This document shows positions 2,465 through 37,182 of a stretch of DNA of 37,182 bases, in pieces. Origin of the DNA: Actinomycetota bacterium (GTDB lineage Bacteria; Actinomycetota; Actinomycetes; Actinomycetales; Kineosporiaceae). Position numbers and translations under genes: made by a program. Below the pieces are notes generated by a model. That model saw only the letters and a list, made by a program, of their open reading frames with translations, was not told where the DNA came from and ran no database searches. The stretch is from the NCBI GenBank assembly GCA_030837345.1, contig JAUPKQ010000147.1, positions 1 through 37,182 on the forward strand, given 5' to 3'. Positions within the stretch are counted from its first letter, which is position 1, and every line of letters starts with the position of its first letter.

Positions 2465-2822
2465 GACGCTATCGCCGGTCTGAAGAGATCAAGAACATCC
2501 ACCAACAACCCGAATCAAGGTTGACAACCCGCGAACCGGATTGCTCGCCCGATCCGCGCCTCACCAACGCGACCGGGGCTGGCCGACGTGCCGCTCGCCG
2601 TCTCCCTGACGGTCACCGACATCCTCGCCGTCCTCGCCCTGGCCGGAGTCCTGGACTTCCTCCGGGGCGCGACGCCCCGTCGCGTCGGTCCTCGCGGCGG
2701 AGTAGCCCTCGCGACCACCGTTGACACCGTCCTGCAGGATGAACGCAGCCCTTGCACGACCTGGATGACGAGCTGTCCCACCTGCTGACCGGCTCCGGCC
2801 TCGACCCAAGGACCTGACCGCG
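2465..2822. other. Gene-poor interval, possibly holding a decayed ORF end
   Basis: No convincing complete gene. A short frame ending at 2817 reads D-L-D-D-E-L-S-H-L-L-T-G-S-G-L-D-P-R-T, which looks protein-like but is preceded by in-frame stops near 2722 and 2740. It may be the tail of a degraded gene. TTGACA at 2521 resembles a -35 box but has no good -10 at the right spacing. Confidence 0.4.
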
Positions 2823-3866
2823 ATGACCCCGCTCACCGGACCATCGAACCTCCCCGCCGTGCCGGAGCAGATCCGCGCCTTCGCCCGGCAGATCGACGTT
2901 GGCCAGGTGCGGCTGTACTCGATCGCCATGACCACCCGGTTCCGCGGCATCACCGTCCGGGAAGGGGTGCTCCTGGAAGGCCCTGCCGGGTGGGGGGAGT
3001 TCTGTCCGTTCGACGACTACGACGACGAGGTCTCCGCCGGGTGGCTGCTGACTGCCCTGGAGGCCGCCGTCCTCGGCTGGCCCGCGCCGGTCCGCGACCA
3101 GATCCCGATCAACGCCACGGTCCCGGTCGTCGGCCCGGAACGCGCGCATGCCATCGTGACGGCGTCCGGCTGTGCGACGGCGAAGGTCAAGGTCGCCGAC
3201 CACCCCGGCTCGCTCGCCGAGGACCTGGCCCGGCTGGAGGCGGTCCGGGACGCTCTCGGCCCGACCGGCGCGATCCGCGTCGACGCCAACGGCGTCTGGG
3301 ACGTCGACACCGCCGTCGCGCGGCTGACCGCGATGGACGCCGCCGCCGGGGGACTCCAGTACGCCGAGCAGCCCTGCCGCACCATCGAGGAGCTCGCCGC
3401 CGTCAGGCGCCGGGTCAGCGTCCCGATCGCAGCCGACGAGTCGATCCGCCGGGCCGAGGACCCGCTGCGGGTCGCCGTCGCCGGTGCCGCCGACATCGCC
3501 ATCATCAAGTGCACCCCCCTCGGCGGCGTCCGCCGTTCGCTGGCCGTCGCCGAAGCGGCAGGCCTGCCCTGCGTGATCTCCTCCGCGCTGGAGACCAGCG
3601 TCGGTCTCGCCGCGCAGCTCGCTCTCGCCGGAGCCCTGCCGGAGCTGGATCACGCCTGCGGTCTGGGGACGTTGTCGTTGCTGCGGGGGGACACCGTGGC
3701 GGGCTCGGCGTCGCTCGTCCCGCGGTCCGGGTGGTTGCCCGTGCCGGCCAGCCCCCCGGCGCCGGACCCCGAACTCCTGGAGCGCCACGCCATGGGTGAC
3801 CCGAAGCGGCGGGCCTGGTGGATCGACCGCCTTCGGCGCACCCTGAACATCCTCATCGGCTCCTGA
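2823..3866 (+). CDS. menC: o-Succinylbenzoate synthase
   Basis: A 347-aa enolase-superfamily enzyme that dehydrates SHCHC to o-succinylbenzoate in menaquinone synthesis. The full catalytic set is present: KVK (Lys121, Lys123), metal ligands Asp154 (VDANG), Glu182 (EQP) and Asp205 (ADES), and Lys229 in IIKCTPLGG. The N-terminal YSIAMTTRFRGITVREG and GWGEFCPF are typical of actinobacterial MenC. The protein is some 20-30 residues longer than usual at the N terminus, so translation may begin after ATG 2823, though no better start with a ribosome site is obvious. No other men gene is adjacent. Confidence 0.93.
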   Translation: MTPLTGPSNLPAVPEQIRAFARQIDVGQVRLYSIAMTTRFRGITVREGVLLEGPAGWGEFCPFDDYDDEVSAGWLLTALEAAVLGWPAPVRDQIPINATVPVVGPERAHAIVTASGCATAKVKVADHPGSLAEDLARLEAVRDALGPTGAIRVDANGVWDVDTAVARLTAMDAAAGGLQYAEQPCRTIEELAAVRRRVSVPIAADESIRRAEDPLRVAVAGAADIAIIKCTPLGGVRRSLAVAEAAGLPCVISSALETSVGLAAQLALAGALPELDHACGLGTLSLLRGDTVAGSASLVPRSGWLPVPASPPAPDPELLERHAMGDPKRRAWWIDRLRRTLNILIGS

Positions 3867-4259
3867 TCTCGGACCGCCCATCCAAAGGGGTGGTTCGGCG
3901 CCTCTCTCGGGTGAACAGTCCTTGAGACCCGGCTCCCGGCGGCGGGTGATGGCAGTGACCTCACGGACCCGGGCGGTACGGCTGACAGGTAAGGACCGTC
4001 GTCCCTCCGGACCACCGTCACGCGAAGGTGCAAATGTTTCGCTGGATTGGTGGTCCGGTCGATGTCGGAGGCCAAGGAACGACAATGTGTCTTTCCACGC
4101 AACGGATTGTGACTGAGGGTAAGGGAATGGTCTGATCCTGTGACTCGTGGCCCGGGACGAGGTGATCATCGATGGACCGCACCCCTTGATCACTCACCAG
4201 GGGCGCCTCACCGACGCCGAAGTCGGGTAACCGACCCGCCATCCCGGCGGGGAGGATCG

Positions 4260-4303
4260 TTGTGTGCAGTTGCTGTCGTTATCACGACGGTGATTGCACA
4301 CAA
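4260..4303. other. Long hairpin, 20-bp stem with 4-nt loop
   Basis: TTGTGTGCA at 4260-4268 and TGCACACAA at 4295-4303 are perfect reverse complements. The inner 11 positions also pair without a gap if G-T wobbles are allowed, closing on a TATC loop at 4280-4283. As RNA the + strand would form a continuous 20-bp stem. It lies about 400 bp after menC and 205 bp before the first CotH gene. It could be a terminator, an operator or a structured leader; the sequence does not decide. Confidence 0.55.
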
Positions 4304-4442
4304 TAATTCCCCGTGGTCCGCGAAACGGGTCTGCGACCCGGTTCTCCATTCTCGATCACCCAGCGCTGCGACCCGATACCCGGAAAGGCCCAATGCGTGA
4401 TCGCTGAGCGCTGTCCGTCGAACGCCTTCGGCGGCATGGAGT

Positions 4443-4476
4443 GCTGGTGGAAAGTCCTGGGCGGACGTACCTTCCC
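4443..4476 (+). promoter_or_regulatory. Conserved upstream element, copy 1 (CotH gene 1)
   Basis: GCTGGTGGAAA, eight variable bases, then CGGACGTACCTTCCC. The same two blocks with identical spacing occur upstream of the second CotH gene (6868-6901). It ends 32 bp before the GTG start. Retention of both blocks and their spacing while the middle diverged suggests a promoter or protein/RNA site. The GGAAA block could be an ECF-type -35, but no standard -10 fits. Confidence 0.55.
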
Positions 4477-4508
4477 AGGGCGGCCAGGGCTCCGGAAAGG
4501 GGATCACC

Positions 4509-6581
4509 GTGCGCACGTCCACGAGGAAGAGATTCTGCCTGTTGGCGGCCGTCTCCATGGTCATGGCGGGTTGGCCGTTGCTGGAGGTGACGTCGGCCTC
4601 GGCAGAGCCAGCGGGTGTCCACCGCGCCGGGACGACGGTTCCGGCTGCGCCGACGATCGCGCCGACGGCTCCGGTGGTGGCGAGGGCGACGGCGACGCCC
4701 GCGCCGGAGGACAGCCTGACCGGCGACATCACGTTCTCCGTGCCGAGCGGCACGTTCTCCGGGCAATTGTCGGTGCAACTGGGAACGACCGTCGAGAACG
4801 CCGAGATCAGATACACGACCGACGGGTCGGTTCCCGTCGCGACGTCCTCGCTCTCTTCGGGCAGCGGCGTCGCGGTCACGAAGACGACCCAGGTACGGGC
4901 GCAGGCCTTTGTCGGCGGAACGGCGACGGGGGCGATGGGGACCGCGATCTACGTCGCCCGGGGGATCAACGCGACGCACGACCTGCCCCTGGTGGTGATG
5001 GATGCCTACGGGGGCGGGAAACCGGCCCGTGAGTACAAGGACGTCTCGGTGATGGTGATGGACGCGAGCGGCGGCACGAGTTCGCTCGCCCAGACGCCGA
5101 CGCTCACCACACGCGGCGGTTTCCATCTGCGCGGCCAGTCCTCGGCGAACTTTGACAAGGCGCCGTACCGGGTGGAGTTCTGGAACAACAAGAACAAGGA
5201 CGCCGACCTCCCCGTGCTCGGGATGCCGGCCGATTCCGACTGGATCCTCCGGGGGCCGTTCCCGGACAAGAGCCTGATCCGCGAGGCCTTCGCCTACACG
5301 CTGGGGCGTGACATCGGGATCGCCGCGCCGCGATTCGCGTTCGTCGAGCTCTACCTGAATCTCGACAACTCCCCGATGGCGGCGAACGACTACCAGGGCG
5401 TCTACATGTTCATCGAGAACATCAAACGGTCCCCGGACCGGGTGAACATAGCCAAGCTGAAGAAAACGCAGCTGAAGGAACCTGAGATCTCCGGTGGCTA
5501 CGTCCTCCAGTTCAACCTGATGTCGGCCGAACCTCCGACGCTCACCTGTACCGGCGGAACCGCGCAGGCCCCCTGCTGGAAAGACCTGGAGGTTAAGGAA
5601 CCCGAAGAACTGCAACCGGCTCAGCAGACGTGGATCACCAATTATGTCCAGAAGTTCCACGACGCGCTTCACGGCCCGAATCCCTCGAATACTCAGACGG
5701 GGTATCCCGCGTATATCGACGTCGATTCGTTCGTCAATATGATCATCGTGAACGAGGTGGCTCGTGAGGGTGACTCGTACCTGAGGAGCACGCACTTCTA
5801 CAAGGACCGCGGCGGCAAGATACTCGCCGGCCCGCTGTGGGACTACGACCTCGGTTTCAACTCCCTCCCGGGATTCTCCGTCGTCGACGGCTGGCAGTAC
5901 AAGCCGCAGAGCGGGATGTTCGGCACGACCAGCGACTGGTTCGAGAAACTGATGGCGGACCCGGTGTTCCTCGCGAAGGTCAAGGACCGCTGGGCGGTCC
6001 TGCGCCAGGGGGCTCTGTCCGACACCCAGATGCAGGCCCGCGTCCAGGCGATCAGCGGGCCGCTCACCAATGCGGCGACCCGCAACTTCCAGCGCTGGCC
6101 GAACCTCAACACCGCGACGGTCGGTGGATTCCCGACCCAGACGAGCCAGACCTGGCAGCAGCAGGTTCAGATCCTCCAGGACTTCCTCGTCAAACGGACC
6201 GCCTGGCTGAACTCCGGTAACGGCTGGGGCGGCGGGACCCCGACACCCACCGGCCCGACCCCGACCGTCACCCCCACCGGGCAGGGGTGTACGGCGGCCT
6301 ACGCGATGACGAACCAGTGGGACGGAGGGTTCCAGGCCGAGATCAAGGTGACGGCCGGGGTCGCGGCGATCAAGGGGTGGAAGGTCACCTGGACGTTCAC
6401 CAACGGCCAGACGGTCAGCCAGTCCTGGAACACGAAGATCACAACGAGCGGGAACTCGGTCACCGCCGCCAACGTGGAACACAACGGCGCCCTCAGCCCC
6501 GGAGGCTCCACAACCTTCGGGCTGCTCGGATCATGGAACAACGGGACGGGCATCTCCGACCTGGCTTGTACGGCGTCCTGA
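4509..6581 (+). CDS. Secreted CotH-family kinase with chitobiase-C-like domain and CBM2
   Basis: 690 aa. GTG start preceded by AAAGGGGA. The N terminus (R/K-rich, then FCLLAAVSMVMAGWPLLEV) is a signal peptide, so the protein is exported. Residues about 70-155 resemble the chitobiase/hexosaminidase C-terminal fold (IRYTTDGSVP, TQVRAQAFV). Residues about 160-560 form the CotH domain, with FHLRGQSSANFDKAPYRVEF, DKSLIREAFAY, YQGVYMFIENIKR and the metal-binding Asp445-Tyr-Asp447-Leu-Gly. A Pro/Thr linker leads to a CBM2 (about 593-690) with aromatic NQWDGGF, GWKVTWTF and QSWN and one Cys near each end. CotH proteins in this superfamily are atypical kinases; CBM2 binds cellulose or chitin. An extracellular kinase held on polysaccharide is the plain reading, but its substrate is unknown. 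Confidence 0.88.
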   Translation: MRTSTRKRFCLLAAVSMVMAGWPLLEVTSASAEPAGVHRAGTTVPAAPTIAPTAPVVARATATPAPEDSLTGDITFSVPSGTFSGQLSVQLGTTVENAEIRYTTDGSVPVATSSLSSGSGVAVTKTTQVRAQAFVGGTATGAMGTAIYVARGINATHDLPLVVMDAYGGGKPAREYKDVSVMVMDASGGTSSLAQTPTLTTRGGFHLRGQSSANFDKAPYRVEFWNNKNKDADLPVLGMPADSDWILRGPFPDKSLIREAFAYTLGRDIGIAAPRFAFVELYLNLDNSPMAANDYQGVYMFIENIKRSPDRVNIAKLKKTQLKEPEISGGYVLQFNLMSAEPPTLTCTGGTAQAPCWKDLEVKEPEELQPAQQTWITNYVQKFHDALHGPNPSNTQTGYPAYIDVDSFVNMIIVNEVAREGDSYLRSTHFYKDRGGKILAGPLWDYDLGFNSLPGFSVVDGWQYKPQSGMFGTTSDWFEKLMADPVFLAKVKDRWAVLRQGALSDTQMQARVQAISGPLTNAATRNFQRWPNLNTATVGGFPTQTSQTWQQQVQILQDFLVKRTAWLNSGNGWGGGTPTPTGPTPTVTPTGQGCTAAYAMTNQWDGGFQAEIKVTAGVAAIKGWKVTWTFTNGQTVSQSWNTKITTSGNSVTAANVEHNGALSPGGSTTFGLLGSWNNGTGISDLACTAS

Positions 6582-6651
6582 GCCGTCACGGGACAGGGCA
6601 CCTGGAGCGGCGACCGGCGACCGGCCGGAGGCTGATTTTCGCGCATTAATC

Positions 6652-6683
6652 GGAACACCCCGGAAATCTTTTCGGGGTGTTCC
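6652..6683 (+). terminator. Terminator hairpin after CotH gene 1
   Basis: GGAACACCCCG (6652-6662) and CGGGGTGTTCC (6673-6683) form a perfect 11-bp stem, with further A-T pairing into the loop. It starts 71 bp after the CotH stop. There is no U-tract beyond it. Confidence 0.75.
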
Positions 6684-7011
6684 GGCGCTCCGTCCGTGGA
6701 CGCGGCGTGTCCGGTCCTGGTTCCCGAACGTCCGGGGCCGACCCATGCCGTCGGCGAAAATGAACGAATTTCGTGAAGGACGGCGATGCGAATGGACCTG
6801 AATCCCTGGATGGGAGGTGGTTAATCACTGATAGGTGATCGGTCGTCCGCATCCTGTCGCGCAGCTTGCTGGTGGAAACTTTCGGCCGGACGTACCTTCC
6901 CTGCGTGGCCCGTGGTGGGAGATGCAGCGCCCCGGTGTCTCCGTCGGAACGAGCCCTTTCGGGGGTACGGCCCTGCCGACGGGTTGACCGGGGCCCAGAA
7001 GGGGAGACACC
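6684..7011. other. Leader region of second CotH gene
   Basis: About 330 bp without a supportable ORF, between the CotH-1 terminator and the CotH-2 start. It contains the conserved element at 6868-6901, followed by a GC-rich 110-bp leader that ends in AAGGGGAGACACC before the GTG. The leader is longer than that of CotH gene 1 (32 bp). I see no known riboswitch core. Confidence 0.5.
6868..6901 (+). promoter_or_regulatory. Conserved upstream element, copy 2 (CotH gene 2)
   Basis: GCTGGTGGAAA, eight bases (CTTTCGGC), then CGGACGTACCTTCCC: identical blocks and spacing to 4443-4476. The element ends 110 bp before the GTG start at 7012. Weak similarity continues about 15 bp downstream (CCC..G.G..GGCC). 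Confidence 0.55.
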
Positions 7012-11879: not shown

Positions 11880-12713
11880 ATGAGCGTCACGATCGCCGTC
11901 GGCGCCTGTGTCACGTCGTCCGTCGCCTACGCGTTGGGGGCGGTTCTTCAGGAACCCTTCGCCCGCTATCCCCTCCGGGCCCTCCTGGCGAGCAGGCTGT
12001 GGTGGTTCGCGATCGGCCTCAACGGGCTGGGTGGTCTGCTGCACGTCGTCGCGTTGCGGTTCGGGCCCCTGTCACTGGTCCAGCCGTTCGGGGTGCTCAC
12101 CCTCGTGATGGCGGCGGCGATGGCCGCCGCCGTCACGAGACGGCGGCCCGCTCCGGCCGAGGGACGCAGCATGCTCCTCACGGTCAGCGGCCTCGCCGGA
12201 ATCCTCGTGCTGACCGCCACGGACACGCCGATCATCACCTTGTCCACCGGCGAGCTCGTCGTCCTCCTGGTCGCCACCACGGTGGCTCTCGTCGTCCTGA
12301 TCGCCGGCAACGTCCTGGTCAGACCGTCGGGCCTGTGGACGGCGGCGGCCGCCGGGATCGCGTTCGGCGTCTGCTCGGCGCTCACCCAGACGATCACCGT
12401 GCGTGCCGCGACCGACGGTCTGGGGTCCTTGCTGCACGCGGCGGACATCACCGCGGCCCTCGCCGTCCTCGTTCTGATCCCCGTCGGGCTGCTGCTCACC
12501 CAGCGCTCCTACCAGGACGGCATCGGCGGGCCGCTGGCGGTGAGCACGATCGTCAACCCGATCACCGCCTCCGCGATCGGCCAGGTCCTGCTCGACGAAC
12601 GGATCGCGGCGGGAAGCATCGGCATCGCCCTCGTCCTCGCCTGCGGCGCGTGCGCGGCGTTCGGGGTCAACGGGCTGACCCACCTCCGCGCCGGCGCGCC
12701 CTCCCGGGCGTAG
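11880..12713 (+). CDS. DMT-superfamily (EamA-like) integral membrane protein
   Basis: 277 aa, about nine hydrophobic segments across the whole length. The pattern is that of multidrug/metabolite transporters of the DMT class: an early YALGAVLQ helix, ALRFGPLSLVQPFGVLTLVMA (the EamA-type 'xGPLxxVQP' stretch) and a late PLAVSTIVNPITASAIGQVLLDERI followed by a GS helix. ATG 11880 is preferred because GAGAGG lies six bases before it; ATG 11874 overlaps that site. The substrate is unknown. It could export a product of the upstream synthase, but a 171-bp gap argues against tight coupling. Confidence 0.8.
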   Translation: MSVTIAVGACVTSSVAYALGAVLQEPFARYPLRALLASRLWWFAIGLNGLGGLLHVVALRFGPLSLVQPFGVLTLVMAAAMAAAVTRRRPAPAEGRSMLLTVSGLAGILVLTATDTPIITLSTGELVVLLVATTVALVVLIAGNVLVRPSGLWTAAAAGIAFGVCSALTQTITVRAATDGLGSLLHAADITAALAVLVLIPVGLLLTQRSYQDGIGGPLAVSTIVNPITASAIGQVLLDERIAAGSIGIALVLACGACAAFGVNGLTHLRAGAPSRA

Positions 12714-12722
12714 GAACGTGTC

Positions 12723-14030
12723 TCAGCGGCTCAGGGGACGTTCGGCGCCTCTGTCCCGGGGACCGGAGGAGGCGACGAGGTCCTTGAGCCGTAGGTCGAC
12801 CCAGACCTCGTCGGCCACCTCGTCCACCTCGATCACGGGAGCGTCCGTCACCTCGTCGCGGTTCGCGAGCGAGGTGGCCGCCCACTGGTTGATCGTGTGG
12901 ACGGAGTCGGTGAGGGAGAGCCCGAGGGATGTCGAGAACCGCCGGATCTCGGGAAGCCTGTGGTACTCGCCGTTCCCGAGGTGACGGGCGAAGACCGTCA
13001 GCCGCGGCGAGAGGTTGCCTCCGGACGTCGAGGGCGGAACGTCGCCGGCGGTGCGGGGGAGCGGAGGACGGTTGCGCGAGGAAGGCTCCGGAGCCGGGGC
13101 GCCGCCGCGCAGCTGCCGGACGAGGTGGTCGACGGTGGGCGTGAGAGCCGGGAACTCCGCCGTCACCTCCGCCGTCACCCGGAGGAAGTCGTCCTCCAGC
13201 TCCTGCTTCTTGTTCGGTGCCACCGCCTGGAGCTGCCGGAACAGGGCCCGCTCGTCGACTGGCTCGTTCCTCCTCCACCGGGCCCGCGCCAGGACGTGCT
13301 CGCGCATCTCCTCGTGACGGACCGTCGTCAGCGTCGGCAGATGACGGATGAGGGTGTCCTGGACGACGTCGTCCGTCGTCCGGCCAGGGCAGAGGAGGGC
13401 GAGGAGGTCGACGAGGTGGTATCCCCGGCGGGAGAGGCTGTCGACGTGGACCGGCCGTTCGCAACGGTAGGCGAGGACCTGCGTCGTGAAGGCCGAGTCC
13501 CCGTCGGGCTGCACCGCGATCAGGTGAGGGAGGTACCGGTGGAGGATGGTCACCGTCATCGGCGGGCGCAGGACCACCCGGCGTTCACCGTGGACCTCGA
13601 CCTCCCGGACGAGCCGTTCGAGGTCGCCGCCGGCCAGGTTCGCCAACACGTACGGTTCCCCAGGCGCAGGGGGTTCCCCCTGCTCGGGGAGGTTCCCCTG
13701 CTCGGGGAGGTTCCCCTGCTCGGGGAGGTTCCCGGGCTCGGGGGGCCGGGGCTCCCCGCCGCGCGGGCGGACGATCACCGCTCCGGACGTCTCCGGCAGC
13801 CGGAGTGCCGCTTCCGCCTCCGAGATCTGGAGGTCGAGGCCGGTCCGGAGCTTCTTCGCCGTGGCCTCCGCCGCGACGACCCGTTCCTCCAGATCACTGA
13901 GGTGGTGCGACCACTCCCGCAGGACGGCGAGGTACAGGGCGAGCTGCTCGCCGTCCATCGAGGCCAGTAGTTCCCTCCGCTCCGCGGCGAAGGAGGGCCC
14001 GCCGGTCCGGGCGGCCTGATCCGGTTGCAT
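12723..14030 (-). CDS. Protein of unknown function with coiled coil and Pro-rich repeat
   Basis: 435 aa, no family recognised. Residues about 15-75 are a charged helix with coiled-coil character (SDLEERVVAAEATAKKLRTGLDLQISEAEAAL). Then comes a Pro/Gly/Glu linker with three copies of G-N-L-P-E-Q. The middle (about 130-300) looks folded (VLANLAGGDLERLVREVEV, MTVTILHRYLPHLIAVQPDG). A second Pro-rich break near 315-345 precedes a C-terminal block ending in an acidic VIEVDEVADEVWVDLRLKDL. There is no signal peptide or membrane span. It diverges from the GGDEF-EAL gene across 183 bp, so the two might share control. Cytosolic location is inferred. Confidence 0.7.
   Translation of the reverse strand: MQPDQAARTGGPSFAAERRELLASMDGEQLALYLAVLREWSHHLSDLEERVVAAEATAKKLRTGLDLQISEAEAALRLPETSGAVIVRPRGGEPRPPEPGNLPEQGNLPEQGNLPEQGEPPAPGEPYVLANLAGGDLERLVREVEVHGERRVVLRPPMTVTILHRYLPHLIAVQPDGDSAFTTQVLAYRCERPVHVDSLSRRGYHLVDLLALLCPGRTTDDVVQDTLIRHLPTLTTVRHEEMREHVLARARWRRNEPVDERALFRQLQAVAPNKKQELEDDFLRVTAEVTAEFPALTPTVDHLVRQLRGGAPAPEPSSRNRPPLPRTAGDVPPSTSGGNLSPRLTVFARHLGNGEYHRLPEIRRFSTSLGLSLTDSVHTINQWAATSLANRDEVTDAPVIEVDEVADEVWVDLRLKDLVASSGPRDRGAERPLSR
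13681..13734 (-). repeat. Three tandem 18-bp repeats
   Basis: Unit TGCTCGGGGAGGTTCCCC at 13681, 13699 and 13717 (the last with one change), with a related imperfect copy just before. Inside the 435-aa gene it encodes repeated GNLPEQ. Each unit also contains GGGGAGGTTCCCC, itself nearly palindromic. Confidence 0.9.
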
Positions 14031-14213
14031 GAAGCCTCGATCCGTTCGTCCGGCGCTCCTCGCGCCCCACCGTGTTCGGCGGCTGTATCGACCGGAGCGA
14101 TCGGGCTCTTGAGGGGCTCGTCCCGCTCAAGCCGGGCCCGTCGAGGTCGATGACTCCGAACGACGGAAACTCCGAACGATGGAGACGAGGGACTCGGGAC
14201 GAGGTGAGAAGGG

Positions 14214-16430
14214 ATGCCTGTGGCCGAGCTCGCCGGTCTGGCGGGCGGCCGGGCGACGATCGACGACGCGCAGCTGCTCGCGCTCGTCCCGCGGCTCCTG
14301 CTGGCCATACTGCTCCTGGTGACTCTCGCGGCCTTCGCCCGGGGGCCGCTCGGCCCGCGGAACCGCGTGAAGGTCGTCCTCGACGTCACGACGGTGTTCG
14401 GCGGCGCTCTCGCCCTCGCGTGGTCCTTCGTCGTCGGGCCGCTGTGGTTCCGTGAGCCAGCGCCTTCGGCCGCTTCGTACCTCGTCACCGTCCTGCGCGT
14501 TCTCGCCGACGTCGCGCTCCTGCTCGCCGCCGCCACGCTCCTGTTCCGTGGCGCGGTGGTGACGGTCCGCCGTCCCCCGGCGCTCCTGATGCTGTCCGTC
14601 GCGGCGTACCTCGTCAGCGACCTGGTCATCGTGCGCGGGCACCTCGGGGAACCCCCGGGCGACTACCCGTGGTGGCTGGGTGCTCTGGACCTCGCCCCCT
14701 ACCTCCTCCTCCTCGCCGCCGCGGTCGTCGAACGCCGGCGGAGACGGCGACGCCCCGACCACCCGGCGACGCTCGTCCGCCCGCACGGAATCCTCCCCCT
14801 CGTCGTCGTCCAGGCCGTGGCGGCGGCGGGGTACGCCCTGCTCGTGACGGCGGTGATCCGGCAGGACGCCGCTTTCTGGCCCGGGATGGTCACCGGCGTC
14901 GTGATCATGACGATCGCGGTGTCCGCGAGACAAGTGATCACTGTGCGGGAGAACGACCGTCTCGCCGTGACCGACGCCCTGACCGGGCTGGCGAACCGGT
15001 TCCAGCTCCGTGCCGAGATGCTGCGGTGCCTGCCGCGCCACGGGCGGCCGGGCGCTCTCGTCGCCCTGCTCCTGCTCGACCTCGACGGATTCAAGCAGGT
15101 CAACGACGCCCACGGCCACGATGCCGGCGACGCCCTCCTTCGGGCCGTCGCCGCTGTCCTGCGCGGCAGGGTCCGGCCGGGGGACACGGTCGCCCGGCTC
15201 GGAGGCGACGAGTTCGCGATCTTTCTCAACGGGATCTCGGACGAACTGGACGCCGTCGCCGTCGCCCGGCGCGTTCTCACGGAGCTCCATCGGCCGTTCG
15301 TGGTCGGGGGGAGGGATCTGCTGGCGGGGGGAAGCATCGGCATCTCCCTCGCGGAACTGCCGGACGAACGCCCCGCGGCCGTCGTCGTGACGGAGCTGAT
15401 GAACCGGGCCGACGTGGCGATGTACGCCGCGAAGCGTTCCGGGAGCAACCGCTGGAGGGTCTACTCACCGGGCGCGGTCGGCCACGCGGACGCCGAGCTC
15501 GGCCGGGACCTCGTCATCGCTCTCGCCGGGCACCAGTTCCAGCTGGTGTACCAGCCCTTGATCGACCTGAGCGACGGCGACCTCGCCGGGATCGAGGCCC
15601 TGCTGCGGTGGGAGCACCCGACGCGGGGACTGCTGACACCCGATGCCTTCCTCCCCCTGGTGCAGGAGTCCGATGTGATCCACCGGCTCGGCATCTGGGT
15701 GCTGCGGGAGGCGTGCACCCAGGTCCGGACCTGGCAGGAGACGCTCCCGGACGGACGGCACCTCACCCTGCACATCAACATCGCACCGATCCAGCTGCGG
15801 TTGGCGACGTTCCCGATGGACCTCCTCGACGTCCTCACGGCCTCCGGCCTCGAGGCCGGCCAACTCGTGCTCGACGTCACGGAACAACTCGTCGACGGCG
15901 AGAGCCGCGCCTGCGCCGTCCTCGCGACGCTGCGCTCGCACGGGGTGCGCGTCGCCCTGGACGGCGTCGGGACGGCACCCGTGTCGCTCGGGAGGATGGC
16001 CCGGTTCCCGGTCGACGTCGTCAAGCTCGACCGGTCCTTCGTCTCCGGCCTGCCGGGCGATCCGGAGGCGACGACGGTGGCCTCGATGGTCCTGCGGCTC
16101 GGGGAGACGATGAACCTGCAGGCGATCGCCGTGGGCGTCGAGACGCCGCAACAGGCCACCGAGGTGACGGAGCTCGGATACCACCTGGCACAGGGGGCGT
16201 ACTTCTGCAGTCCGCTGGGCCCGGAACTGATGCGCGCCTGGATCTCACGCTGGGGCTACCCGAGCGTGGACACCGAACCGCGCCGGTCGTTCGTCTCCCG
16301 GGCCGGAACGCTCCCCCGACCCCGTCCGGTTCCGGGGGCGGTTCCGGGGGCGGTTCCCGGGGCGGTTCCCGGGGCGGTTCCCGGCGAGGCCGGGGAGCCC
16401 GCGCGGTTCCGTGGCCTAAGGGCCGATTAA
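14214..16430 (+). CDS. Membrane GGDEF-EAL protein (c-di-GMP cyclase with degenerate EAL domain)
   Basis: 738 aa. Residues 1-240 hold about seven membrane helices with a basic loop (RRRRRRRPDH). The diguanylate cyclase domain follows, with intact GGDEF (330-334), an inhibitory I-site R-P-G-D (321-324) and DGFKQVNDAHGHDAGD. The EAL domain has EALLRW (Glu461), Glu557 in VTEQ, KLDRSF, GVET and QGAYF, but the metal-binding DDFG motif reads D-G-V-G (583-586). Loss of that second Asp usually weakens or removes phosphodiesterase activity, so net c-di-GMP synthesis, with EAL as sensor, is likely. The C-terminal tail is VPGA repeats. Start ATG 14214 or GTG 14220; both have purine-rich sites. A membrane signal input is probable. 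Confidence 0.92.
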   Translation: MPVAELAGLAGGRATIDDAQLLALVPRLLLAILLLVTLAAFARGPLGPRNRVKVVLDVTTVFGGALALAWSFVVGPLWFREPAPSAASYLVTVLRVLADVALLLAAATLLFRGAVVTVRRPPALLMLSVAAYLVSDLVIVRGHLGEPPGDYPWWLGALDLAPYLLLLAAAVVERRRRRRRPDHPATLVRPHGILPLVVVQAVAAAGYALLVTAVIRQDAAFWPGMVTGVVIMTIAVSARQVITVRENDRLAVTDALTGLANRFQLRAEMLRCLPRHGRPGALVALLLLDLDGFKQVNDAHGHDAGDALLRAVAAVLRGRVRPGDTVARLGGDEFAIFLNGISDELDAVAVARRVLTELHRPFVVGGRDLLAGGSIGISLAELPDERPAAVVVTELMNRADVAMYAAKRSGSNRWRVYSPGAVGHADAELGRDLVIALAGHQFQLVYQPLIDLSDGDLAGIEALLRWEHPTRGLLTPDAFLPLVQESDVIHRLGIWVLREACTQVRTWQETLPDGRHLTLHINIAPIQLRLATFPMDLLDVLTASGLEAGQLVLDVTEQLVDGESRACAVLATLRSHGVRVALDGVGTAPVSLGRMARFPVDVVKLDRSFVSGLPGDPEATTVASMVLRLGETMNLQAIAVGVETPQQATEVTELGYHLAQGAYFCSPLGPELMRAWISRWGYPSVDTEPRRSFVSRAGTLPRPRPVPGAVPGAVPGAVPGAVPGEAGEPARFRGLRAD
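16328..16387 (+). repeat. Five tandem 12-bp repeats
   Basis: Units GGTTCCGGGGGC (copies 1-2) and GGTTCCCGGGGC (copies 3-4), starting at 16328, 16340, 16352 and 16364, plus a partial fifth. They encode V-P-G-A repeats in the disordered tail of the GGDEF-EAL protein. Confidence 0.9.
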
Positions 16431-36143: not shown

Positions 36144-36187
36144 GGCGACGGTTATGCCGTCGGCCGGTGTCGGTTGCCCAACAGCCG

Positions 36188-36452
36188 ATATCCCGACCGG
36201 CTTCGGCTCCCATCGGACACGTCATCGCCGGTCTGGCCTCCGTGCCCTACACCCACGAGATCTCAGTCCGGCTCCACACCGACCTCGCCCAGGCACGGCG
36301 ACGGATCCCGCCAACCGTCGGCACTTTCGTCGAGGTCGACGACGGAGCTCGGCTGGCCCTTCACCATCGAACGACCCGACGAACGACGGAACCAGGTACA
36401 CCTCCTCACCACCCGCCTCCTCGCCCGCCTCGACGAGGAAGCCCGGAGCTGA
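36188..36452 (+). pseudogene. Broken WYL-domain transcriptional regulator (C-terminal remnant)
   Basis: In one frame, to about 36355: GHVIAGLASVPYTHEISVRL, then RRRIPPTVGTFVEVDDGARL, which matches the end of actinobacterial WYL/YafY-type regulators. The last piece, WPFTIERPDERRNQVHL...LLARLDEE, continues in another frame to 36452. The segment normally between them is missing, so there is both an internal deletion and a frameshift. The HTH half is absent. The gap from the previous gene (36144-36187) holds nothing clear. Confidence 0.75.
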
Positions 36453-36525
36453 ACGGTGGTGTCGGTGTTGCAGGGGCGTTGAGTGTGAGAGAGGACGTCT
36501 CGAAGCGTAGGCCGCGCGTACAGCG

Positions 36526-36803
36526 ATGAGTCCTGCTACCCGTGACTTCTACTTCATCGGCGCGGTCGTGGTGGACGACGTCAGCGGCCCGGCCGTGCAC
36601 GCCGCAGTCGGCGCCGTCGCGGACGGCTGCGCCTCGTGCCGTCCGAGCCTTCCCGGCTCACCCAGGCCGCCGACCTGGCGACCTTCCTTCACCGCCGACG
36701 CTCGGCCACCGTCGAGACCAACCCCAAGCAGGAGAAGGCGATCTCGAGGATCTGGGCTCACGTGGAGGGATGGATCGCCTACCAGCTCACGACCTGCCCG
36801 TAG
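36526..36803 (+). pseudogene. Unidentified decayed coding remnant
   Basis: Two protein-like pieces lie in different frames: from ATG 36526, SPATRDFYFIGAVVVDDVSG; and, ending at the stop at 36801, a frame with ADLATFLHRRRSATVETNP then EKAISRIWAHVEGWIAYQL. They may once have been one gene. I considered a transposase but see no DDE motif or terminal repeats. Beyond 36803 only the hairpin and the CRISPR repeats are seen. Confidence 0.35.
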
Positions 36804-36810
36804 ACGCACG

Positions 36811-36836
36811 AAGGCCCCGCACACTCGCGGGGCTTC
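36811..36836. terminator. Hairpin in decayed region
   Basis: AGGCCCCGC (36812-36820) pairs with GCGGGGCTT across a six-base loop (ACACTC), with one G-T wobble. It could end a transcript from either side, including leftward CRISPR RNA. Confidence 0.5.
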
Positions 36837-36968
36837 AGGCACTGCGGCTGGTTCCCGAAGGAACGGCTGCCCCACCAGTATCGGCACGTCGCCGAGCATC
36901 TGCGACACACCGCAGGGTGGCGGTAACGAATGGAGCCGCAAACCGTGTGAAGCGGGACTGACCAGCCA

Positions 36969-37182
36969 GCCGTTACGAAGCCCGGTCTTGGAGCCCGGGA
37001 AGACCCTCGAAGCATCCGGGGATCGTCGCCGCTGTGAGGGCACCGCTACGGAGCCTGGTCTTGGAGACCGGGAAGACCCGCTACGACCTGGACTCGATCA
37101 CCAGGCACGTGAAGGAGCCGCTACGGAGCCCGGTCTTGGAGACCGGGAAGACGAAGACCCGACCCGACGTTGCGGATCGCGA
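36969..37182 (-). CRISPR. Edge of a CRISPR array: three 36-nt repeats, two complete spacers
   Basis: Repeats at 36969-37004, 37042-37077 and 37117-37152, each 36 nt. On the + strand the consensus begins GCCGCTACGGAG, has CCCGGTCT-TGG-AGACCGGG (8-bp stem, 3-nt loop) and ends AAGAC. Spacers are 37 nt (37005-37041) and 39 nt (37078-37116); a third begins at 37153 and is cut by the window edge. The repeat at 36969 has three substitutions, one breaking the stem, and nothing repeat-like precedes it, so this is probably the leader-distal end. Leader and transcription would then come from the right, on the minus strand, where the repeat starts GTCTTCCCGG. No cas gene is in the window, so the subtype is unassigned. 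Confidence 0.9.

What the first reader, a model, noticed from the sequence alone, without database searches (positions are those of the whole stretch)
36969..37182. CRISPR array with an unusual 36-nt repeat starts at the right edge
Three repeats with regular 37 and 39-nt spacers and a perfect 8-bp internal stem. The terminal repeat is degenerate, marking the leader-distal end. The repeat does not end in the common ATTGAAAC form, and the cas genes, if any, lie outside the window, so this may belong to a less common or orphan system.
Basis: partly seen in the sequence, partly recalled or inferred. Interest (0 to 1): 0.75.

Follow-up and report, generated by a model that had tools for sequence, protein, structure and literature searches.

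The report
Tail of a type I-G CRISPR array
The window ends in three repeats of a bacterial CRISPR immune memory whose type I-G cas genes sit on another piece of the same draft genome, so this is an ordinary example of a known, less common CRISPR subtype.

Summary
Three 36-nt repeats (36969-37004, 37042-37077, 37117-37152) carry unrelated 37- and 39-nt spacers and a spacer cut at 30 nt by the contig end. The system is not orphan. Contig C192 of the same genome starts with five more copies of the repeat. Beside them lie cas2, a cas4-cas1 fusion, a 330-aa Cas8g-like/"Cas3-extension" gene, cas3g and the 3' end of csb2, which mark type I-G (formerly I-U). A search finds no other cas1 in the assembly. 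csb1 and the 5' part of csb2 were not found, probably an assembly gap. The crRNA-sense strand is the window's minus strand. Read that way, the C192 form of the repeat is 35/36 identical to an Actinoplanes type I-G repeat. It has a stem ending 4 nt before the predicted Csb2 cut and an 8-nt handle (GTAGCGGC; many relatives ATTGAAGC or ATTGCGGC), as reported for Thioalkalivibrio. So the odd repeat end mostly reflects reading the other strand. No convincing spacer target was found in the collections searched. Open: whether window and C192 repeats form one array, or two arrays flanking the cas operon. Ordinary: a new member of a known kind.

The parts
36969..37004 (-). CRISPR repeat 1, leader-distal and degenerate
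   Evidence: three mismatches to the third copy, stem weakened
37005..37041 (-). spacer, 37 nt
   Evidence: its 21-nt end next to repeat 2 has no exact match in viral contigs; in the own genome one other place, at 3 mismatches; 28 nt of it match a Paracoccus plasmid at 92.9%, E 0.3, chance level
37042..37077 (-). CRISPR repeat 2, two mismatches to copy 3
37078..37116 (-). spacer, 39 nt
   Evidence: 21-nt end without exact match in viral contigs
37117..37152 (-). CRISPR repeat 3, with perfect 8-bp stem; predicted 8-nt 5' handle of the crRNA = 37117-37124 read on the minus strand
37153..37182 (-). spacer, cut off at 30 nt by the contig end
   Evidence: 21 nt of it without exact match in viral contigs

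Best explanation
It is the leader-distal end of a type I-G CRISPR array in a draft actinobacterial genome. The array would be transcribed on the window's minus strand from a leader to the right of the window. Csb2 would cut each repeat 4 nt after its hairpin, leaving an 8-nt 5' handle. The crRNA would assemble with Csb1/Cas7g and the 330-aa Cas8g-like protein, and Cas3g would destroy matching DNA. The fused Cas4-Cas1 and Cas2 would add new spacers at the leader end. Shown here: repeats, spacers, the cas genes on C192, repeat kinship with I-G arrays. Inferred: transcription, cutting, interference, acquisition, the presence of csb1, and the physical link of the two contigs.
For: The own-genome search with a 31-nt repeat core finds 8 places at up to 3 mismatches: 3 in the window, 5 at C192. 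Next to them on C192: Cas2 (44 bits, cut-off 24.5), Cas4g/Cas1g NF049935 (751 bits, cut-off 560), NF049934 type I-G protein (299 bits, cut-off 65), Cas3g TIGR02621 (747 bits, cut-off 400), and the C-terminal part of Csb2 TIGR02165 (79 bits, cut-off 45); PADLOC's best names are Cas2g, Cas1g, Cas8g, Cas3g, Cas56g. One cas1 match in the assembly, on C192. Of 80 loci fetched with the Cas4-Cas1 protein (80 kept of 171), 61 show an array; the nearest repeat is 35/36 identical to the C192 form (L023, Actinoplanes regularis). Of 24 repeats compared, 23 have a 7-8 bp stem ending at nt 24, which leaves 4 nt plus an 8-nt handle, the geometry reported for Thioalkalivibrio Csb2 (PMC9638904, passages).
Against: csb1 and the 5' part of csb2 were not found in the assembly. 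The window repeats have G at sense position 1 in 3 of 3 copies and the C192 repeats have C in 5 of 5, so they could be two arrays. No convincing spacer target was found. Two of the three window repeats fold no better than shuffles.
Confidence: 0.93

Rival explanations
1. The window repeats are a second array of the same I-G system, lying upstream of csb1 and inverted relative to the cas operon, not the far end of the C192 array.
For: L025 (Mangrovihabitans) has an inverted second array upstream of its cas3 and cas4-cas1, and L023 a second array upstream of csb1. The window and C192 copies differ consistently at sense position 1, whereas in the relatives looked at that letter is nearly constant within a locus.
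Against: Both contigs break inside repeat-spacer DNA and face each other in the right orientation; variant repeats are usual at the old end of an array (general knowledge). Not decisive either way.
Confidence: 0.35
2. Orphan array without cas genes.
For: No cas gene was recognised among the 15 window ORFs scanned with Pfam (5, 10; 128 ORFs of 100 aa or more exist), and genome searches for Cas1 and the Cas3 C-terminal helicase part put no match on the window's contig.
Against: Same repeat beside type I-G cas genes on C192.
Confidence: 0.03
3. An ordinary tandem repeat.
For: None beyond repetition itself.
Against: Unique spacers of 35-39 nt and adjacency to cas2 on C192.
Confidence: 0.01

Closest known systems
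Type I-G (formerly I-U) CRISPR-Cas of actinobacteria, e.g. Actinoplanes regularis (L023)
   Same: C192 repeat 35/36 identical to the upstream L023 array (31/36 to its downstream one); Cas4-Cas1 73% identical in the best segment; gene order csb1-csb2-cas3-NF049934-cas4/1-cas2-array in L023, matched by C192 from the end of csb2 on.
   Different: Repeats at the far end have drifted; csb1 and most of csb2 were not found in the held assembly.
Type I-G of Bifidobacterium lactis (PMC12915315, passages read) and I-U_csb3 of Salinispora (PMC4223832, passages read)
   Same: B. lactis: 36-bp repeats, cas4-cas1 fusion, cas2, cas3, csb1, csb2 and a third effector gene, csb3. Salinispora: I-U repeats average 37 nt, and a csb3 variant is named beside a csx17 variant.
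   Different: That the 330-aa protein here is Csb3 was not tested; NCBIfam calls it 'Cas3-extension family' and PADLOC Cas8g. The gene order of the Salinispora variant was not seen (figure not held).
Type I-G of Thioalkalivibrio sulfidiphilus (PMC9638904, passages read)
   Same: 36-nt repeat, 8-nt handle, cut by Csb2 4 nt after the hairpin (predicted here, measured there).
   Different: Its large subunit is Csx17/Cas8g, and five genes lie between Csb2 and Cas4-1 per its figure legend.

Membership tests
CRISPR array | Near-identical short repeats with unique spacers of even length | tested here: met
   Eight 36-nt repeats on two contigs, six whole spacers of 35-39 nt, no two alike
Type I CRISPR-Cas | cas3 helicase-nuclease | tested here: met
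   Cas3g on C192, helicase part plus C-terminal HD domain
Type I-G CRISPR-Cas | Cas4-Cas1 fusion of the I-G family | tested here: met
   NF049935, 751 bits against a cut-off of 560
Type I-G CRISPR-Cas | Csb2 (Cas5-Cas6 fusion) | tested here: inconclusive
   Only the C-terminal 134 aa are held, open at the contig end; 79 bits against a cut-off of 45
Type I-G CRISPR-Cas | Csb1/Cas7g | tested here: inconclusive
   Not found in the own assembly with TIGR02570, PF09617 or the Csb1 of L023; no control genome rang, but TIGR02570 does recognise Csb1 of three relatives. In those relatives csb1 lies upstream of csb2, which here is past the end of C192, so an assembly gap is likely
Type I-G CRISPR-Cas | Large subunit Cas8g | tested here: inconclusive
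   330-aa protein: PADLOC Cas8g E 3e-24 over profile positions 1-265 of 287, but NCBIfam files it as NF049934 'Cas3-extension family' (299 bits, cut-off 65); its role is not shown
Type I-G CRISPR-Cas | Repeat with hairpin and ATTGAAGC-like 8-nt handle | tested here: met
Type I-G CRISPR-Cas | Active interference | not testable with these tools
   needs an experiment

The most novel reading that the evidence does not exclude
The genome carries a two-array, inverted arrangement of a compact actinobacterial I-G system in which the short NF049934 protein, instead of a Csx17-type Cas8g, serves as the large subunit and the two arrays use slightly different repeats.
Probability: 0.2. Interest if true: 0.25.

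Novelty: new member of a known kind. Interest (0 to 1): 0.12.

Why it matters
Little beyond one more actinobacterial type I-G example. It shows that an apparently orphan, odd-looking array at a contig edge becomes ordinary once the repeat is searched in the rest of the assembly and read on its sense strand.

Tried and rejected
Spacer targets: window 36900-37182 and C192:1-330 were compared with phages (no match) and plasmids (two weak matches each). Of the four plasmid matches, one lies in the flank and repeat 1 (E 0.9), one inside the 37-nt window spacer (28 nt, 92.9%, urtB of a Paracoccus plasmid, E 0.3), one across a C192 repeat and spacer (35 nt, 88.6%, Streptomyces plasmid, E 0.02) and one mostly inside a C192 spacer (30 nt, 93.3%, aldehyde dehydrogenase gene of a Cupriavidus plasmid, E 0.3). 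I take them as chance; that was not tested further. Exact 20-22-nt pieces of all seven spacers gave 0 matches in viral contigs; near-matches were not searched there. One spacer end was searched in the own genome: the only other place differs at 3 of 21 bases; the other six were not. So origin and PAM stay unknown.

Repeat core in 12 other genomes of the family, up to 2 mismatches: 0 of 12 (13 genomes with the own one). NF049934 in the order: 8 of 297 genomes at E 0.001 or better, 4 of 297 over the cut-off, the own one included.

csb1: searched three ways in the own genome, not found. A search for the Cas3 C-terminal helicase part gave 6 places in the own genome, 3 over the cut-off (C192, C50, C83); the model also rings in 14 of 14 control genomes, so I take all but C192 for other helicases, without a test.

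Stem count: for the 6-13/17-24 stem the covariation score is 0.380, reached by 0 of 500 shuffles, but two other measures are reached by 49 and 26 of 500, and sliding the 3' partner by one column scores higher than the structure given (74.0% against 69.3% of cells paired; covariation 0.571 against 0.380). One search shows why: 12 of 24 rows close a 4-nt loop, 11 a 3-nt loop (the two own rows among them), with the 3' foot of the stem at nt 24 in both; L030 fits neither. The 22 relatives' repeats, from 21 loci, were picked by hand from the list; others, L028 among them, were left out. Of the 80 loci, 19 showed no array in the script, L021 among them; some of those are short contigs. L056 and L071 carry arrays with a repeat of another kind, and are counted among the 61.

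Papers: PMC9638904, PMC12915315, PMC4223832 and PMC10333696 were seen as passages found by term, not in full. The other papers were seen in the listing only.

Three ORFs between 36071 and 36961 and three frames between 36122 and 36800 matched nothing in Pfam. A thought that they hold remnants of a WYL regulator and of a DUF3800 protein is from memory and unsupported. No tRNA and no Rfam family were found in the window. Plasmids hold Cas4-Cas1 relatives below 60% identity in 173 records; not followed.

Full report
Observation. The right end of the window holds three 36-nt repeats at 36969-37004, 37042-37077 and 37117-37152, separated by 37- and 39-nt spacers, with a third spacer cut at 30 nt. 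Position 37182 is the end of contig C236. Spacers are unrelated to one another (highest pairwise ungapped identity 43% among the seven spacers of both contigs). The only 18-mers of the window that recur at 50-90 nt lie inside these repeats, and 0 of 100 random first-order windows had such a pair. Only the third copy has the perfect 8-bp stem; copy 1 differs from it at 3 positions and copy 2 at 2, and both fold no better than their shuffles.

The rest of the system. A search of the own genome (269 contigs, 97% complete, 0.77% contaminated) with a 31-nt repeat core, up to 3 mismatches, gave 8 places: the three in the window and five at the start of contig C192 (L013, 6992 bp). On C192 the repeats are at 2-327 with four spacers of 35-38 nt. 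The genes on the minus strand, in order away from the array, are cas2 (496-780), cas4-cas1 (824-2512), a 330-aa gene (2509-3501), cas3 (3498-6593) and the end of csb2 (6586-6990, cut by the contig end). NCBIfam names them Cas2, Cas4g/Cas1g, type I-G Cas3-extension family, Cas3g of type I-G and Csb2, all above their cut-offs; PADLOC's best names are Cas2g, Cas1g, Cas8g, Cas3g and Cas56g. A search of the assembly for Cas1 gives this one place. This is a type I-G system, so the array is not an orphan. csb1 and the 5' part of csb2 were not found. In the three relatives whose Csb1 and Csb2 were scanned (L021, L023, L028) these genes lie directly upstream of cas3 (Cas3g confirmed in L021 and L023), which here is past the end of C192, so a gap in the assembly is the simplest reason.

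Strand and repeat. The cas genes of C192 are transcribed towards the array. In L022-L028, oriented by cas4-cas1, the array downstream of cas4-cas1, where there is one, has its sense repeat on the same strand. The sense strand of the window repeats is therefore the minus strand: GTCTTCCCGGTCTCCAAGACCGGGCTCCGTAGCGGC for copy 3, with C instead of G at position 1 in all five C192 copies. Of 80 loci that encode a relative of the Cas4-Cas1 protein (the best 80 of 171), 61 show an array. Against the C192 form, the nearest repeat, in Actinoplanes regularis (L023), is identical at 35 of 36 positions, and one in a Pseudonocardia MAG (L022) at 32 of 36; Kineosporia babensis (L028) has 25 of 36. Of 24 repeats aligned (two own, 22 picked by hand), 23 have 7-8 pairs in a stem whose 3' foot is nt 24, 11 with a 3-nt and 12 with a 4-nt loop; L030 is the exception. 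A pair count on one register alone is beaten by the version slid one column, because of these two loop sizes. The last eight bases, the predicted handle, are among others ATTGAAGC, ATTGCGGC, ATAGCGGC and, here, GTAGCGGC. Thioalkalivibrio Csb2 cuts 4 nt after the hairpin and leaves an 8-nt handle (PMC9638904, passages), which gives just this partition of the 36 nt.

Which end. The left-most window copy is the most degenerate, so the leader-distal end is probably at 36969 and the leader to the right. C192 has the matching orientation: five identical copies next to cas2, open at its left end. The simplest picture is one array broken by the assembler between the two contigs. Against it, the first sense base is G in 3 of 3 window copies and C in 5 of 5 C192 copies, and two relatives carry a second array upstream of the operon, inverted in L025 and in the same direction in L023. 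I put two arrays at about one in three.

Targets. Nothing convincing was found for the spacers in phages, plasmids or viral contigs; four plasmid matches of 28-35 nt have E-values of 0.02 to 0.9. One spacer end was checked against the own genome and its only other place has 3 mismatches in 21. The PAM could not be derived.

Mechanism. Inferred from the family: Csb2 makes the crRNAs, Csb1/Cas7g with the Cas8g-like protein forms the surveillance complex, Cas3g degrades the target, and Cas4-Cas1 with Cas2 adds spacers. None of this was tested here.

Verdict. A real CRISPR array, most likely the old end of a type I-G array of a known actinobacterial kind; of low novelty.

Noticed in passing
window 36144-36961: Stretch between a 212-aa ORF and the array with short overlapping frames and no Pfam match among those scanned; it looks like decayed coding DNA.
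   Followed up: partly
L025:1363-2710 and 12150-14011; L023:2201-2893 and 12137-14775: Relatives with two I-G arrays on either side of one cas operon; in L025 the upstream one is inverted. L050 and L096 show several arrays on the same side.
   Followed up: partly
alignment A1, rows: Type I-G repeats fall into two stem registers, 3-nt and 4-nt loop, with the 3' foot of the stem fixed at nt 24.
   Followed up: partly
L013:2509-3501: 330-aa type I-G protein named 'Cas3-extension' by NCBIfam but Cas8g by PADLOC; 54% identical to its counterpart in Kineosporia babensis. Its role as a compact large subunit is open.
   Followed up: no
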